Shown piece by piece: positions 55,376-64,000 of a stretch of 64,000 nt of DNA. The translations under genes and the position numbers were made by a program. The stretch comes from Geobacter sp. (lineage in GTDB: Bacteria > Desulfobacterota > Desulfuromonadia > Geobacterales > DSM-12255): the NCBI GenBank assembly GCA_009886125.1, contig VFJK01000166.1:1-64000 (forward strand), in the 5' to 3' direction. The notes beneath the pieces are model-generated. The model was not told where the DNA came from. It did no database searches and saw only the letters and a list, made by a program, of their open reading frames with translations. Position 1 is the stretch's first letter; the number at the start of each line of letters is the position of its first letter.

Positions 55376-56515
<1,140 letters not shown>

Positions 56516-58014: not shown

Positions 58015-58920
58015 CTATTTACTCTCTTTCTTATATGCCTGCGGTTCCACATCCCGGCACTTCTGTTCAAGCTGGTGGGCGATGCGCTGGATCATGCCAG
58101 CAGTCAGAGGAGTGTCAATCTTGATTTTGGCAAAAGGAGGATTCTTGCCGCTAAAGATGATTACATCACACGGTTTCCTCAGCTCAGTATTCCACCCGGT
58201 TATTGCCAGAGCCGGTCGAACCGTTACGGCATCGCCAATCGCGCTGCTCAACCACTTTGCAAGCCAATCAGCTTGCCGCCTCGCTTGTGGCAGGTAATCA
58301 CGCTCCGTCCAATTCGGAAACTGCAAAGCCTGCCCATCATAGATTACGGACCAGTTTTTCTTGTCATCCGTTGACTTAGGTTTTGCTTTCCCCTTGGTTT
58401 CGACGGCAAACACGCCATTCTGCCCGATGACGATATGATCGATATTGAACTTGTCCGCCTGAAAATCATGGTAAACGCGGAATCCATCGAGCATCAGTTG
58501 GTTCAGCTCCTGGCCGATTGACATTTCCGCGTCCAGGCCGAGGCGAAGATGATTGCGGCGGGTCAATGCTCTGGTTAATTTTACGATAACTATGGCTTCG
58601 TAAATTGTCATTGCTATGCTGTACAAGACCGCAAGCAGAGCTGGATTATGGATTTTCTCGAAATGAAGCTGCGTCAGGAAGATGGCATATAAAGCCAATG
58701 GAGCAATGACGGAAACAAGTAGATAGGCATTTATATCGATATTGATGTCTTCAATCTGTTGACGGAGCGACTCCCCTGGACTCCGCAGCAAATCCCTGGT
58801 TAGCGGCGAACGCTTCCCGCGGATTTTCAGCCTGCTCAGCCAGAGTGACGGGAAGGCAACGATGCACATCGGGACAAGAACGATCGCGGCAGGGAGGAGG
58901 GTTATGATGAGGTTTGACAT
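58015..58920 (-). CDS. Membrane-anchored NERD nuclease-domain protein
   Basis: 301 residues. An N-terminal helix (about 3-28) and two more (67-86, 96-115) anchor it in the membrane. Residues 134-265 are a NERD domain, a nuclease-related fold: GQELN (Glu138), NIDHIVIG (Asp161) and VETKGK (Glu174, Lys176) form the expected PD-(D/E)xK-like active site. Such proteins are predicted nucleases in defence or DNA-handling systems. Its start overlaps the end of the HEAT gene by 19 bases, so the proteins are made together. Confidence 0.8.
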   Translation of the reverse strand: MSNLIITLLPAAIVLVPMCIVAFPSLWLSRLKIRGKRSPLTRDLLRSPGESLRQQIEDINIDINAYLLVSVIAPLALYAIFLTQLHFEKIHNPALLAVLYSIAMTIYEAIVIVKLTRALTRRNHLRLGLDAEMSIGQELNQLMLDGFRVYHDFQADKFNIDHIVIGQNGVFAVETKGKAKPKSTDDKKNWSVIYDGQALQFPNWTERDYLPQARRQADWLAKWLSSAIGDAVTVRPALAITGWNTELRKPCDVIIFSGKNPPFAKIKIDTPLTAGMIQRIAHQLEQKCRDVEPQAYKKESK

Positions 58921-61130
58921 TTTCTGGATCTTCCCTTTTTTGCCTGCTTACGATGGACTGGTTTATTCTCGCAACTTTGAGTCTCTTCAGAACAACTTTC
59001 CAAAGCGCAGTTCCGTACCCACCAGCTAGCATCACTGGACAGATCGTTCAAAATGTTCTTGAGCCTTGTAACTATTTCACCATCAACCATAGTATGCTTC
59101 AATAACGCCCTTGCCGCCCTCGCTGCTTCAGCTCGCTCATTTGCATCGGTCGAGCTTGACGCATTCTTGATAGCCCGCACTCCAAGGAGAAGCCCTTGCC
59201 GATCTAAACCCAATGTTTGTAAAGTACCTAATGCATAAAGAGCCCGCTTACGCACAGCTGGCGACGAATCAAAGCAGTTTGTTATGAGCGATGTAGTTTC
59301 GCTTTCAGTAAGACAATCAGCTTCAAGTGCAGCAGAAACTCCATATTTCCTAATTTTCTCATTTTCTGCCTCAAGGAGCTCTAATAACACTCCTGAATGC
59401 AATTCAGTTCTAAACTCAGAATGGAATTTACTGCCGTGAGCCAGCGTCAGCCCAGCAATGCTTACCAAATCGCACGGGTCACCAGAAGAAATTTTGAACG
59501 GGTTTAGCGGACTTTTAGCCTCTTGATAGGTTTGAGCAACGTCTGACTCTTTAAAAATGCCCCGTGCAATCTGGCCGAGTATTTGAGAGGATCGTTGCGC
59601 GAGTCCAGACGTTAAACGAGGAATGAATTTTTCTAGCGATTGAGCTAAGGATACTCTATTGGACACAATATTGCGGTCATCAGCAATCATGTCAAGCAGT
59701 GCATCAACAATTTGGTTCACAGAATCATCGGTCAAGCTGCTGACATGTGCCGCTATTGCATCTATCAAATGCTGATTTCCTGCCATATGAACGACAATTT
59801 TCTCAGAGCCTTTTGACTTTGTTATTTGGCCAAAACCGCCCAATTTTGACGGTTCTGCCGCTTCATCAAGAACTTCAACTTGTTTTCTTACAGAGGACGC
59901 GATACGAGCCGCGCCTGCGTTTATCGTCTCTTCATCCTGAAGCGGGCACTCAAGTAAAGAAGCCAATATCAATAATGTGGAATTGGAAACTTGAACTCCT
60001 GGTGGGAAAAGCGCCGATTTTATCTCAGTACTACAGGATTCACATCTCTCTGCGAACAGATACACAAGGTTAACCGAATCCACAAAATCAAAATCTGATT
60101 TATATGTAGTTACGAGGCTGATAACAGAGGGAGTAAACTGGGTTAACAAGTCTTGCGAGATTTTTTGGAATATGCAATTGCATGATTCTATCAAATGTTT
60201 TCTTGCAGGATTTCCCTGAATAAAAAAAGGATGCTCTACAGCCAACTGCGCAAAACCAAGAAGCAATTGTGCGTTAATCCTAGGGGCAAGCTGTCCGGCA
60301 AGTTTCCATACCGGTTCATATATTGAAGAGTGTATCCAGGCAGTAGGAACGAATTGCAGCTGCTCAACCAGCCAGGGTATTACATATTCCAGCCTATCTT
60401 CAGGAATACAGTCTGCTATAGTGGACAAAAAGTGTGCTACCAGGTATGTGTGTTTTGCCAACTTGGAAAACATCAAGACGCGATCAATTGCAGCAGCAAT
60501 TCGATCACTCTCTTTTAAGACCATCAAAGCGTTCGCAGCCTCTACCACCAAATCTTTATCAAGAGCCTGAACAGCATGCCAGACGGCTTCATCCGGCCAG
60601 TTGAGCGCAATGCACTCCCTTGCCATGTGACTGTGTGCCACTTGAAGCGCCCGCCAGTTCTGCTTTTGATAAGTTTCCAGAAGTTGTCGCCAAACAAGCG
60701 GGAGCGCCTCATAATGTTTTCCCGCTTTTGCACTTCTCTCCGCCTCCAACGCGGCGCTGGAGTTACGTAGTTCAACACCTAACAATCTACGTATATCAAC
60801 TTGGTGATAGAACTGATTCGATCCGTCGGCATTGAATAATGCGAAAGAAATAATTGAACGGTTATCAGTGAGCAAAGCTGAACATTCTGGAGGTAAGTGC
60901 TCCAACAGCGGCTCAATGTTAGTGTCGTAAGTGCTGCTAGCGCTATCAAACTGTTGATCAAGATACAGAAGTTCACATTGCTGCATGTACAATGCAATGC
61001 GCGCTGGTGGCGGTAGTTCAGCATCGACATTCAAAATGGCTATGCCGGCAGATGCGCCGTATTGCATAGCAGCTGCGCGGGCTCTTACAAGCCGGTTTCG
61101 TGTTGTTCCGTCAACAAGAGAGGTCAGCAT
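58902..61130 (-). CDS. Large HEAT/TPR-like helical-repeat protein
   Basis: 742 residues, almost wholly helical with no enzyme motif. The first 300 residues look TPR-like (ALPLVWRQLLETYQKQNW). The C-terminal 150 contain HEAT-like repeats (RKYGVSAALEADCL, SSPAVRKRALYALGTL, DANERAEAARAARALL, SDASWWVRNCALES). The tail is basic with three cysteines (ETQSCENKPVHRKQAKKGR). It overlaps the HD gene by seven bases and the NERD gene by 19, so it is the middle part of a three-gene cassette and may be the sensor or scaffold. The DNA looks less GC-rich than the flanking housekeeping genes. Confidence 0.75.
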   Translation of the reverse strand: MLTSLVDGTTRNRLVRARAAAMQYGASAGIAILNVDAELPPPARIALYMQQCELLYLDQQFDSASSTYDTNIEPLLEHLPPECSALLTDNRSIISFALFNADGSNQFYHQVDIRRLLGVELRNSSAALEAERSAKAGKHYEALPLVWRQLLETYQKQNWRALQVAHSHMARECIALNWPDEAVWHAVQALDKDLVVEAANALMVLKESDRIAAAIDRVLMFSKLAKHTYLVAHFLSTIADCIPEDRLEYVIPWLVEQLQFVPTAWIHSSIYEPVWKLAGQLAPRINAQLLLGFAQLAVEHPFFIQGNPARKHLIESCNCIFQKISQDLLTQFTPSVISLVTTYKSDFDFVDSVNLVYLFAERCESCSTEIKSALFPPGVQVSNSTLLILASLLECPLQDEETINAGAARIASSVRKQVEVLDEAAEPSKLGGFGQITKSKGSEKIVVHMAGNQHLIDAIAAHVSSLTDDSVNQIVDALLDMIADDRNIVSNRVSLAQSLEKFIPRLTSGLAQRSSQILGQIARGIFKESDVAQTYQEAKSPLNPFKISSGDPCDLVSIAGLTLAHGSKFHSEFRTELHSGVLLELLEAENEKIRKYGVSAALEADCLTESETTSLITNCFDSSPAVRKRALYALGTLQTLGLDRQGLLLGVRAIKNASSSTDANERAEAARAARALLKHTMVDGEIVTRLKNILNDLSSDASWWVRNCALESCSEETQSCENKPVHRKQAKKGRSRKCQTSS

Positions 61131-62635
61131 ATCCCGTCCTCCTCACAACTAACAATCTGTCCCAAATTGCCTTGCAGCAAATGCATTTCTGCGATTTCAG
61201 CTAAAGCATTCTCACGTTCTGACACTTGGGTCGTTGTTTGGGCAATTTCATCATAAGCTCGAACTGCTTCTTGATATGCACATGCGTCACGTAAAGCCAC
61301 TGCCCAGATGTTAAGAAATAGAAGTTTATTGGGGCTGTCTGGAGTTAAACTTGAAAAGTGCGGAGCGAACTCTCGGAGGTGTCGTAATGCACTATCCGTT
61401 ACATTATCCGCTATCATCAACTCTCCCAGCTTTAAAGCCACATTCAGCATAATTTCTTCACTAATCCTGGATTTGAGTCTACTAAATTCACTTTGGAGAA
61501 GTGTCCACGCGTCGCGCCTACCACCAATCACAGATAGATGTTCCGCAAGACTTTGGGCTTTCAATATAAGTACATCTGGCAGGTCAGTCGCATTCTGAAG
61601 CGATTGGAACTCCCGTTTAATCGTAGGTCGAGCAACGCGAAGTTGTGTCACAGCAGTCAAGCGTTGTTGGCGGAGTTCCTCTGCTTGACGAGCTACAGCT
61701 TTCTCCACAGCGTACCTTTCGAGTTCGTTGTCCATCACTCGGGAAATACACTGCGCTTCCGAAGTATCACAAGCCCGAACGTGCCATGCAAGACCATTCG
61801 AGGCTAATACAGTAGAGTGACGATCCACTTCTGCCTTAATCCATGGCATCTGTAATGGCTCGAAAAGCTCTTTGTATTGAACTCTTCGCTCTGAAGGAAA
61901 ATCAAACCATACTGTGATGTTACGGGCTTCAATTGAAATGCTTGAGACATAATAATGACGCCACCAGTGTAGCCGACTTTCAAGTGGCAACTCCCTTGTT
62001 TGCTCCAAAAACAATTGTGTGCGGCGTTGCGATTCGTCAAGAATATCAGCCAGTCGCAATAAAGCAGAGAGTAGTCCCACTCTAAGATGACCTTGATCGG
62101 CTGTATTAATCTGGTATTCAACTGAATCGCTTGCCAAGCAGTGTGCAAGACATAACGACGCTACAATACCAGGCTTATCGCCATCAATTAAAGATATGCC
62201 TATTTCAGGATCGCCATTTCGAACAGCCCTTCGAACAAGTTCATTGGAAATTCTATGGTGCTGTTCCCTTAGAATGTTTTTCTTTGTTTCCTCCCCCAAG
62301 GTCTCCCATGTTTGGCCACTGAAGGGCTCAACCGCCAAAACACGGCTAATAACTTGTGTAGTTCCTGCTCGCTGATGCTGCATCCCTACATCATGAAGGT
62401 AGCAAGCAGCATAAAGCACAAAGGCTTCATCAGAGTTAAGCATCTTTTGCTGATCAAGAGTTACAGCAAGTTCATCCACAATATTACAGAGTTGGTCAGA
62501 ATGGCTCACTGAATGATCCGTAAAGTGGCTGAGATAGTTACTGGCCAAAAGCGGAGCCACCGCACCACGGATTGTGGTGAGCCGTGCTACTCTGTTTTGG
62601 TCGTTTTGCAGAAGTTTAAATGTTGGCGCTGTCAT
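61124..62635 (-). CDS. HD-domain protein (HD-CE-like), head of the cassette
   Basis: 503 residues. The N-terminal 290 form an HD phosphohydrolase-type domain: His41 and His45 (HSVSHSDQL), the His81-Asp82 pair (CYLHDVGMQ), a second histidine pair (EQHHRIS) and the later LLRLADILDESQRR helix. This pattern is like the HD-CE group predicted in conflict systems, where HD domains may act on nucleotides. The C-terminal 200 are helical with TPR-like repeats. A GAGG site precedes the ATG. It is 59 bases from the restriction gene, and its end overlaps the HEAT gene by seven bases. Confidence 0.75.
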   Translation of the reverse strand: MTAPTFKLLQNDQNRVARLTTIRGAVAPLLASNYLSHFTDHSVSHSDQLCNIVDELAVTLDQQKMLNSDEAFVLYAACYLHDVGMQHQRAGTTQVISRVLAVEPFSGQTWETLGEETKKNILREQHHRISNELVRRAVRNGDPEIGISLIDGDKPGIVASLCLAHCLASDSVEYQINTADQGHLRVGLLSALLRLADILDESQRRTQLFLEQTRELPLESRLHWWRHYYVSSISIEARNITVWFDFPSERRVQYKELFEPLQMPWIKAEVDRHSTVLASNGLAWHVRACDTSEAQCISRVMDNELERYAVEKAVARQAEELRQQRLTAVTQLRVARPTIKREFQSLQNATDLPDVLILKAQSLAEHLSVIGGRRDAWTLLQSEFSRLKSRISEEIMLNVALKLGELMIADNVTDSALRHLREFAPHFSSLTPDSPNKLLFLNIWAVALRDACAYQEAVRAYDEIAQTTTQVSERENALAEIAEMHLLQGNLGQIVSCEEDGIC

Positions 62636-62694: not shown

Positions 62695-63444
62695 CTACTC
62701 CCTCGCCGCCTCCACCGCCACCCGCGCCGCAAAGCCGGCAAAGAAGCTCCTGATACTCGTCAGCTCGGACAGTTCCGTACACTTCCCGGTTTTACCAGCC
62801 GACCGTGACGACAGCAACAGCGCGGCGGATGAGTAGAGCTTCTCCTGCATCAGCTTTTTGCACAGGAGGTTATAGCGCTCCGCATAGGACGCTCCTCGGA
62901 ACTCGGGAAACATGGGGAAGTTGTGGCAGGTCTCCTTTACCGGCGAGCGGGACTTGTCGCAATCCTCCAGCATCATCATCCAGCCAACGAATGGCGCCGG
63001 ACTTTCGCCGAATGCGCCTTCCCGAAAGGCCACCCAGATATCGTGAGCCGTCCCGATTGCCTCTTCGGCGCGGTTGTTGAAATTGTTGCCGAAGGAGGGG
63101 CCGACCTGGCTCTTGAACTCCAGCGCCGCTACCAGCCTCCCTTCGTGAATGACCACGACATCCCATACCTTGGTCGGGCGGAAATAACCGGGTAGCGTCA
63201 GGAGCTTGCGCGATACCTGCACTTGGGCATCCGGCAGGCCGTTGGCGACGACAAGCTGCTGCACGATGGCGAGAAAGCCGTCCATGTTCTTCCCGGCAGT
63301 AACGGAGGCGCGTTCCCCTTGGTCGGCTTTGCCGCTCTCAACCTGCTTGATCCGGGCAGACTCCCGGCTCCCCCAGAAAGCGCGGACTGCCGCACGGATG
63401 TTGTTGTCAAACTCCGGCAATTCAATAGGCATATCAGTTCCCAT
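62695..63444 (-). CDS. Type II restriction endonuclease, XhoI/PaeR7I family
   Basis: 249 residues, full length for the family. The conserved core [35 protein letters not shown] and EEAIGTAHD matches XhoI/PaeR7I enzymes, with the E-x-K metal site in ALEFKSQ. Characterised members cut CTCGAG; the specificity here is inferred from similarity. CTCGAG sites occur in this window (for example in the cold-shock gene), so matching methylation is needed. Two starts are possible (63444 and 63432); it overlaps or abuts the methyltransferase stop. Confidence 0.9.
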
Positions 63445-64000
63445 TCCCCCCGAGGGCAGCCCTCTGATTAGTATCCAAACCGTACAGATCGAAGGTGACC
63501 CGGTTGCACTCTTCGGTATCCCCCAATCTGGCCGCCTCTTTCAATTTATCCTGCAGTTCCGTCGGCACCTCACTCCACCGCGGCAACCTGATCCGGCGCA
63601 GGTACTGCGCCTGGTATCGCAGGTAGCCCCCACGCATCTGCGTCGAGTAAACACCGACGAAGAGGCGCGCTATGCCGGACCGCAGGACCGCCTGGAGCGC
63701 CCTCAGATCCCATTCGGATGAAGTGATGTAGTAGAGATTGTGATGCGGATAATACTGGCCGGTTTCGTAGACGACGTTGGCCTCTCCTTTGATATCCGGG
63801 ATCAGCAGCTTCTTCTCGCTGAGCAGCGGGGGATAGATTCGGTCGATGGTCCGGTACCACACATGAGGATTTCGCTTGGCGCAGTTCCTCGCAGCGATTA
63901 CGTCCCGCCTTGCCTCTAAATACCTTTTCAGCTTCGGATAGCTGTTGAGATCGACGACGGTCCCGTCGTTGTTGAAAGGGTTCACTACCCCCAGACCCTG
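63434..64000 (-). CDS. DNA adenine methyltransferase of the restriction-modification pair, C-terminal part
   Basis: The frame is open to the window edge; about 188 codons are visible. Residues such as [32 protein letters not shown] and [19 protein letters not shown] are typical of the target-recognition region of class I N6-adenine methyltransferases (TaqI/PaeR7I type). The catalytic NPPY part lies outside the window. Its stop overlaps the endonuclease start, so methylase and nuclease are coupled. Confidence 0.8.

What the first reader, a model, noticed from the sequence alone, without database searches (positions are those of the whole stretch)
58015..62635. Three-gene overlapping HD / HEAT-repeat / membrane-NERD cassette beside a restriction system
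An HD-domain protein, a 742-residue helical-repeat protein and a membrane NERD nuclease overlap one another by 7 and 19 bases, which is strong evidence for one functional unit. Each domain type occurs in bacterial conflict systems, and the cassette lies directly next to a XhoI-type restriction-modification pair in a region with gene fragments. I do not recognise this exact combination. A plausible scheme (inference) is nucleotide hydrolysis or signalling by HD, sensing by the repeat protein, and membrane-localised nuclease action by NERD.
Basis: partly seen in the sequence, partly recalled or inferred. Interest (0 to 1): 0.75.

Follow-up and report, generated by a model that had tools for sequence, protein, structure and literature searches.

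The report
Mobile HD-phosphohydrolase / helical-repeat gene pair

Summary
The three ORFs, their domains and their 7- and 19-base overlaps are real. Comparison with other genomes splits the "three-gene cassette". HD and HEAT form a true two-gene unit: two distant relatives were found, a Phycisphaerales MAG (46% and 31% identity) and a second genome of that phylum. Both carry the same two genes in the same order, overlapping or abutting, and neither has NERD. The metal-binding residues H45/H81/D82/D197 and H41, H126 and H165 are invariant in 13 aligned HD-CE domains. The NERD gene is separate: homologues occur in 19 other genomes of the class, and none of 13 neighbourhoods read has HD or HEAT. 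There it usually follows an HNH endonuclease or a restriction gene. The overlap with NERD falls in a disordered tail that the other HEAT proteins lack. Everything, XhoI included, lies in an 8.9-kb insertion between tgt and mazG, which abut in four relatives. In one relative genome the pair is cargo among filamentous-phage genes (Zot, secretin, Rep). Best reading: a rare, mobile, uncharacterised two-gene conflict system with an HD-CE/TPR enzyme and an alpha-solenoid sensor or restrainer, probably anti-phage. Defence function, substrate and trigger are inferred, not shown.

The parts
61124..62635 (-). HD-CE phosphohydrolase with C-terminal TPR-like helical repeats (503 aa): residues ~36-241 HD-CE, ~330-495 helix pairs
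   Evidence: Pfam PF24391 E 9.3e-32; H41, H45, H81, D82, R123, H126, H165, D197, R205 invariant in 13 HD-CE domains; C-terminal helix pairs at pLDDT 65-88, best fold matches TPR domains
58902..61130 (-). HEAT/alpha-solenoid partner (742 aa), start codon overlaps the HD stop by 7 nt; last ~30 residues non-conserved
   Evidence: one HEAT repeat PF02985 E 1.1e-5; all-helical model, residues 712-742 below pLDDT 50; full-length relatives L013 (31%) and L017 (24%)
61124..61130 (-). HD/HEAT overlap (ATGCTGA) behind a GAGGAGG ribosome-binding-like stretch; the same junction is 1 nt (TGATG) in L013 and 0 nt in L017
58015..58920 (-). Membrane NERD nuclease (301 aa), independent neighbour, not part of the conserved unit
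   Evidence: PF08378 E 2.3e-14; full-length or partial homologues in 19 other genomes of the class, none of 13 neighbourhoods with HD/HEAT; D161/E174/K176 invariant in 13
62695..63444 (-). XhoI-type restriction endonuclease (neighbour)
   Evidence: PF04555 E 2.1e-91
63434..64000 (-). XhoI-type methyltransferase, 3' part inside the window (whole gene runs to 65137 on the contig)
   Evidence: PADLOC MTase_II E 5e-88, PF12950; full ORF 567 aa
56506..64000 (.). Inserted island between tgt (55385-56515) and mazG (65356 on the contig); homology to four relatives, where tgt and mazG abut, stops near 56505 and resumes near 65371

Best explanation
The finding contains a rare, horizontally moving two-gene system: an HD-CE phosphohydrolase with a TPR-like tail and, translationally coupled behind it, a ~720-residue alpha-solenoid (TPR/HEAT) protein. 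Most likely it is an anti-phage (conflict) module. The solenoid binds the enzyme, through its tail, and a phage- or damage-derived trigger. Release or activation lets the HD site hydrolyse a phosphoester in a nucleotide or a related signal and so stops phage replication or cell growth. Shown: the pair's conservation and coupling across two phyla, its mobile settings, and intact HD metal ligands. Inferred: complex formation, phosphohydrolase activity, nucleotide-type substrate, sensing by the solenoid, anti-phage output. The NERD gene downstream is a separate gene placed there by island assembly.
For: Full-length pair in G000, in a Phycisphaerales MAG (L013: HD 46% over 445 aa, HEAT 31% over 714 aa) and in G691 (37% and 24%); every full-length HD found has the HEAT partner and the reverse. 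Junctions of 7, 1 and 0 nt. HD metal ligands and neighbouring residues invariant in 13 diverged HD-CE domains. Mobility: 8.9-kb insertion between tgt and mazG next to XhoI RM, with GC3 0.38-0.40 against 0.58-0.76 for flanking genes; in G691 the pair lies between inovirus-type genes: Zot PF05707, secretin/pIV PF00263 and phrog_1012, Rep PF23343. Other HD-CE proteins found here are fused to NACHT, nSTAND1, HSP90-like ATPase or IF-2B, and the PADLOC model RT_UG24 (DRT) carries a matching stretch. Precedents: Clover, an HD dNTPase toxic without its partner (PMC12265719), and a defence module in a filamentous prophage (PMC11341870).
Against: No experiment. Only three instances. No named defence-system model matches the pair apart from the partial RT_UG24 hit. 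L013 lies beside a ribosomal-protein-S1-like gene on a 6.7-kb contig, with no visible defence context. The HD model is poor over the catalytic half (pLDDT mostly below 50), so substrate class cannot be read from structure. The HEAT fold matches are generic solenoids (TM 0.2-0.35).
Confidence: 0.5

Rival explanations
1. The three-gene scheme of the first reader: HD, HEAT and membrane NERD form one system, HD signalling, HEAT sensing, NERD cutting DNA at the membrane.
For: Same strand, 19-nt overlap, no terminator-like site between HEAT and NERD, NERD catalytic residues intact; co-transcription is likely.
Against: NERD absent beside both other pairs; 13 NERD neighbourhoods lack HD/HEAT and 8 have an HNH-type gene directly beside NERD; GC3 0.59 against 0.38-0.40; the overlap lies in a HEAT tail missing from both homologues and predicted disordered.
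Confidence: 0.1
2. The pair is a toxin-antitoxin-like or prophage-control module: the HD enzyme is a growth inhibitor restrained by the solenoid, kept for stability of the mobile element or exclusion of competing phages rather than for general defence.
For: Two coupled genes, mobile settings, inovirus-like cargo position in G691; the Clover effector is toxic without its partner (PMC12265719).
Against: Enzyme-first order and a ~720-aa partner are unusual for classical TA; no HTH or NTase in either gene by Pfam/NCBIfam. It overlaps with the main reading and cannot be separated from it by sequence.
Confidence: 0.25
3. The pair is a metabolic or housekeeping regulator (nucleotide or second-messenger turnover, or protein scaffolding) without a conflict role.
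For: HD domains are widespread in housekeeping; L013 lies next to a ribosomal-protein-S1-like gene.
Against: Very sporadic distribution (no member in 12 relatives of the same family; only the own genome among 395 of the phylum), foreign composition, island and phage-element settings.
Confidence: 0.15

Closest known systems
Pfam HD-CE (PF24391) proteins fused to NACHT, nSTAND, HSP90-like ATPase or IF-2B
   Same: Same catalytic domain with the H41/H45/H81-D82/H126/H165/D197 set; joined to a putative sensor or regulator
   Different: Here no NTPase or IF-2B domain was detected; the HD protein ends in TPR-like repeats and the partner is a separate alpha-solenoid
Clover (CloA HD dGTPase + CloB nucleotidyltransferase)
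   Same: Two-gene unit with an HD phosphohydrolase and a second protein that may restrain it
   Different: Partner is an alpha-solenoid, not a Pol-beta NTase; HD subfamily is HD-CE; activity untested
DRT UG24 (PADLOC RT_UG24)
   Same: Its model carries a stretch matching the HD-CE region (E 1.3e-13, model positions 799-911 of 1036)
   Different: No reverse transcriptase here
NERD proteins next to HNH or type I restriction genes in the same class
   Same: The window's NERD is 41-55% identical to full-length ones, with the same catalytic residues
   Different: In the window its neighbour is HD-HEAT rather than HNH or HsdM/HsdR

Membership tests
Pfam HD-CE (PF24391) | Profile score above the curated cut-off | tested here: met
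   111.2 bits against a cut-off of 27; 123 bits for the L017 member
Pfam HD-CE (PF24391) | Metal-ligand set H...HD...D intact | tested here: met
   H45, H81, D82, D197 and H41, H126, H165 invariant in 13 sequences
Two-gene HD-CE + alpha-solenoid unit (defined here) | Both genes full length, same order, overlapping or abutting, in unrelated genomes | tested here: met
   Window, L013, L017: junctions 7, 1, 0 nt
Three-gene HD-HEAT-NERD system | NERD present beside other HD-HEAT pairs | tested here: not met
   No NERD in the ORFs of L013 or within 7.7 kb after the pair in L017; no HD/HEAT in 13 NERD neighbourhoods
Clover (CloA/CloB) | Partner nucleotidyltransferase with the [DE]h[DE] motif | tested here: not met
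   Partner matches only HEAT repeats above cut-off in Pfam and is nearly all-helical by model
Clover (CloA/CloB) | dGTPase activity of the HD protein | not testable with these tools
   Needs biochemistry
DRT UG24 | Reverse transcriptase domain | tested here: not met
   Only the HD-CE-like part of the profile (799-911 of 1036) is matched; no RT domain in Pfam
HD-CE STAND/NACHT or HSP90-type conflict proteins | STAND/NACHT NTPase or HATPase domain in the unit | tested here: not met
   None detected in HD or HEAT proteins, though present in other HD-CE proteins
NERD nuclease | NERD domain with D-E-K catalytic residues | tested here: met
   54.3 bits against 22.1; D161/E174/K176 invariant
Anti-phage defence system | Protects against phage when cloned | not testable with these tools
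   Needs an experiment

The most novel reading that the evidence does not exclude
HD-CE enzyme plus a dedicated alpha-solenoid partner is a new two-gene anti-phage system in which the usual NTPase switch of STAND/HSP90-type HD-CE proteins is replaced by a repeat-protein sensor, spread between phyla partly by filamentous phages and guarding their host against competitors.
Probability: 0.3. Interest if true: 0.7.

Novelty: new variant of a known kind. Interest (0 to 1): 0.5.

Why it matters
HD-CE domains recur in predicted bacterial immune proteins, in many of the cases seen here attached to complex regulators; a minimal two-gene form with a repeat-protein partner would be a tractable system in which to find their substrate. 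The result also corrects a common inference: overlap with a neighbour inside a defence island does not by itself make a functional unit; the same two genes found elsewhere, without the third, show where the unit ends.

Tried and rejected
HEAT protein against 244 genomes of the class, plasmids, phages and genome contigs: nothing but itself. HD against plasmids, phages and viral contigs, with window, L013 and L017 queries or alignments: nothing; the HEAT alignment against viral contigs: nothing. The 'fused HD-HEAT in other genomes' idea: the long HD-CE ORFs found (631-1192 aa) mostly proved to be IF-2B, NACHT, nSTAND or HSP90-type proteins, not HD-HEAT fusions. Structures: HD model too weak for its catalytic half; fold search gave only generic TPR and HEAT solenoids. 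PDB sequence search gave no real relative. Literature search for 'HD-CE' gave only unrelated abbreviations. No clean direct repeats, and no promoter or terminator excess, in the island.

Full report
Observation. The three minus-strand ORFs are present as described, with overlaps of 7 and 19 nt. Domain calls: HD-CE (PF24391) and a weak plain HD for the first, a single HEAT repeat for the second, NERD (PF08378) for the third; XhoI endonuclease and its methylase lie upstream. The methylase is complete on the contig beyond the window (567 aa).

Is it one unit? The deciding evidence is what relatives do. A scan of 84,980 species' genomes with the HD protein gave one relative, a Phycisphaerales MAG contig (L013), whose next gene is a homologue of the HEAT protein (31% over 714 aa; HD 46% over 445 aa). 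A profile of the two HEAT proteins then found a second pair in G691, in the same phylum as that MAG, again HD directly followed by HEAT (37% and 24% identity to the window). The HD/HEAT junctions are 7 nt overlap, TGATG (1 nt) and abutting. The pair is rare: profile or protein searches over 395 genomes of the window's phylum and 343, 170 and 223 genomes sampled around L013/G691 found only these three full-length members.

NERD. Neither other pair has NERD: in L013 the next long ORF after HEAT is a ribosomal-protein-S1-like gene (identified by reading its translation), in L017 a 320-aa unrelated protein. Conversely the NERD protein has homologues in 19 other genomes of the class, mostly full length and 41-55% identical; 13 neighbourhoods read had no HD or HEAT homologue by profile search. 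In eight of them NERD adjoins a ~325-aa gene of one kind (partial in one); the four scanned whole all carry HNH_2. Elsewhere the neighbours are HsdM, a type I R-like gene or a Vsr gene. GC3 is 0.59 for NERD, 0.38-0.40 for HD and HEAT, 0.67-0.76 for XhoI R and M. The window's HEAT protein has a ~30-residue tail that the two others lack and that is predicted disordered (712-742); the 19-nt overlap with NERD lies in it. I infer that HD-HEAT was placed in front of NERD and the HEAT frame runs on into it. Co-transcription remains possible.

Mobility. In four relatives (G088, G214, G076, G015) tgt and mazG abut or nearly so; in the window's genome 8.9 kb lie between them, homology breaking near 56505 and resuming near 65371. 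The whole set, XhoI included, is therefore best read as an acquired island. In G691 the pair lies on the opposite strand between a secretin/protein-IV gene, a Zot gene and an adsorption-like gene on one side and a phage-type Rep gene (PF23343) on the other, i.e. in the cargo position of a filamentous-phage-like element. A filamentous prophage of Pseudomonas carries a module that protects its host from lytic phages (PMC11341870).

Mechanism. In 13 diverged HD-CE domains H41, H45, H81, D82, R123, H126, H165, D197 and R205 are invariant, so the metal site is under selection and a phosphohydrolase activity is likely (general knowledge of the HD superfamily). The C-terminal third of the HD protein is modelled as TPR-like helix pairs (pLDDT 65-88) and the partner as a solenoid throughout; both are natural binding surfaces, so an HD-HEAT complex with the solenoid as sensor or restrainer is the simplest inference. 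Other HD-CE proteins met in the same searches are fused to NACHT, nSTAND1, HSP90-like ATPase or IF-2B domains, and the PADLOC model of DRT UG24 contains a matching stretch. This is conflict-type company, by association only. Clover shows that an HD dNTPase can be an anti-phage effector that is toxic without its partner (PMC12265719). Substrate, trigger and phenotype of the present pair are not shown.

Limits. Only three pairs; the two others come from one phylum, one of them a short MAG contig. Only three papers were opened (PMC8195603, PMC12265719, PMC11341870), and 'HD-CE' returned nothing relevant, so prior description of this exact pair under another name cannot be excluded. The structure model of the catalytic half is poor. 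No metagenome scan was available.

Verdict. The pair is a rare, mobile, apparently uncharacterised variant of HD-CE conflict systems, with a moderate chance of being a new anti-phage system.

Noticed in passing
L050, L051, L052, L053, L055 (partial), L056, L057, L059: A recurrent neighbour pair in this class: a ~325-aa gene of one kind (HNH_2 endonuclease in the four scanned) directly beside the membrane NERD nuclease, in defence-like settings; a better candidate for the NERD's real partner.
   Followed up: partly
L017:1962-14548: Inovirus-like element (secretin/pIV, Zot, adsorption-like, Rep) in a genome of the phylum of the Phycisphaerales MAG, carrying the HD-HEAT pair on the opposite strand.
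   Followed up: partly
L005, L006, L007: HD-CE proteins with an IF-2B-like C-terminal half (Pfam hit in L006 and L007; L005 by reading only), an unexplained enzyme combination.
   Followed up: no
L028, L029 (NACHT with NA-iREase1), L011 (nSTAND1), L008 (HSP90-like ATPase): HD-CE domains fused to NTPase modules of predicted immune proteins.
   Followed up: partly
window:57678-57911: DUF2442 gene with a weak match to antitoxin DhiA (E 0.015) and no toxin partner seen; small ORFs and a P-loop-like fragment nearby suggest decayed genes inside the island.
   Followed up: no
window:56693-57184: 163-aa ORF of high GC3 (0.76) at the left end of the island, unidentified.
   Followed up: no
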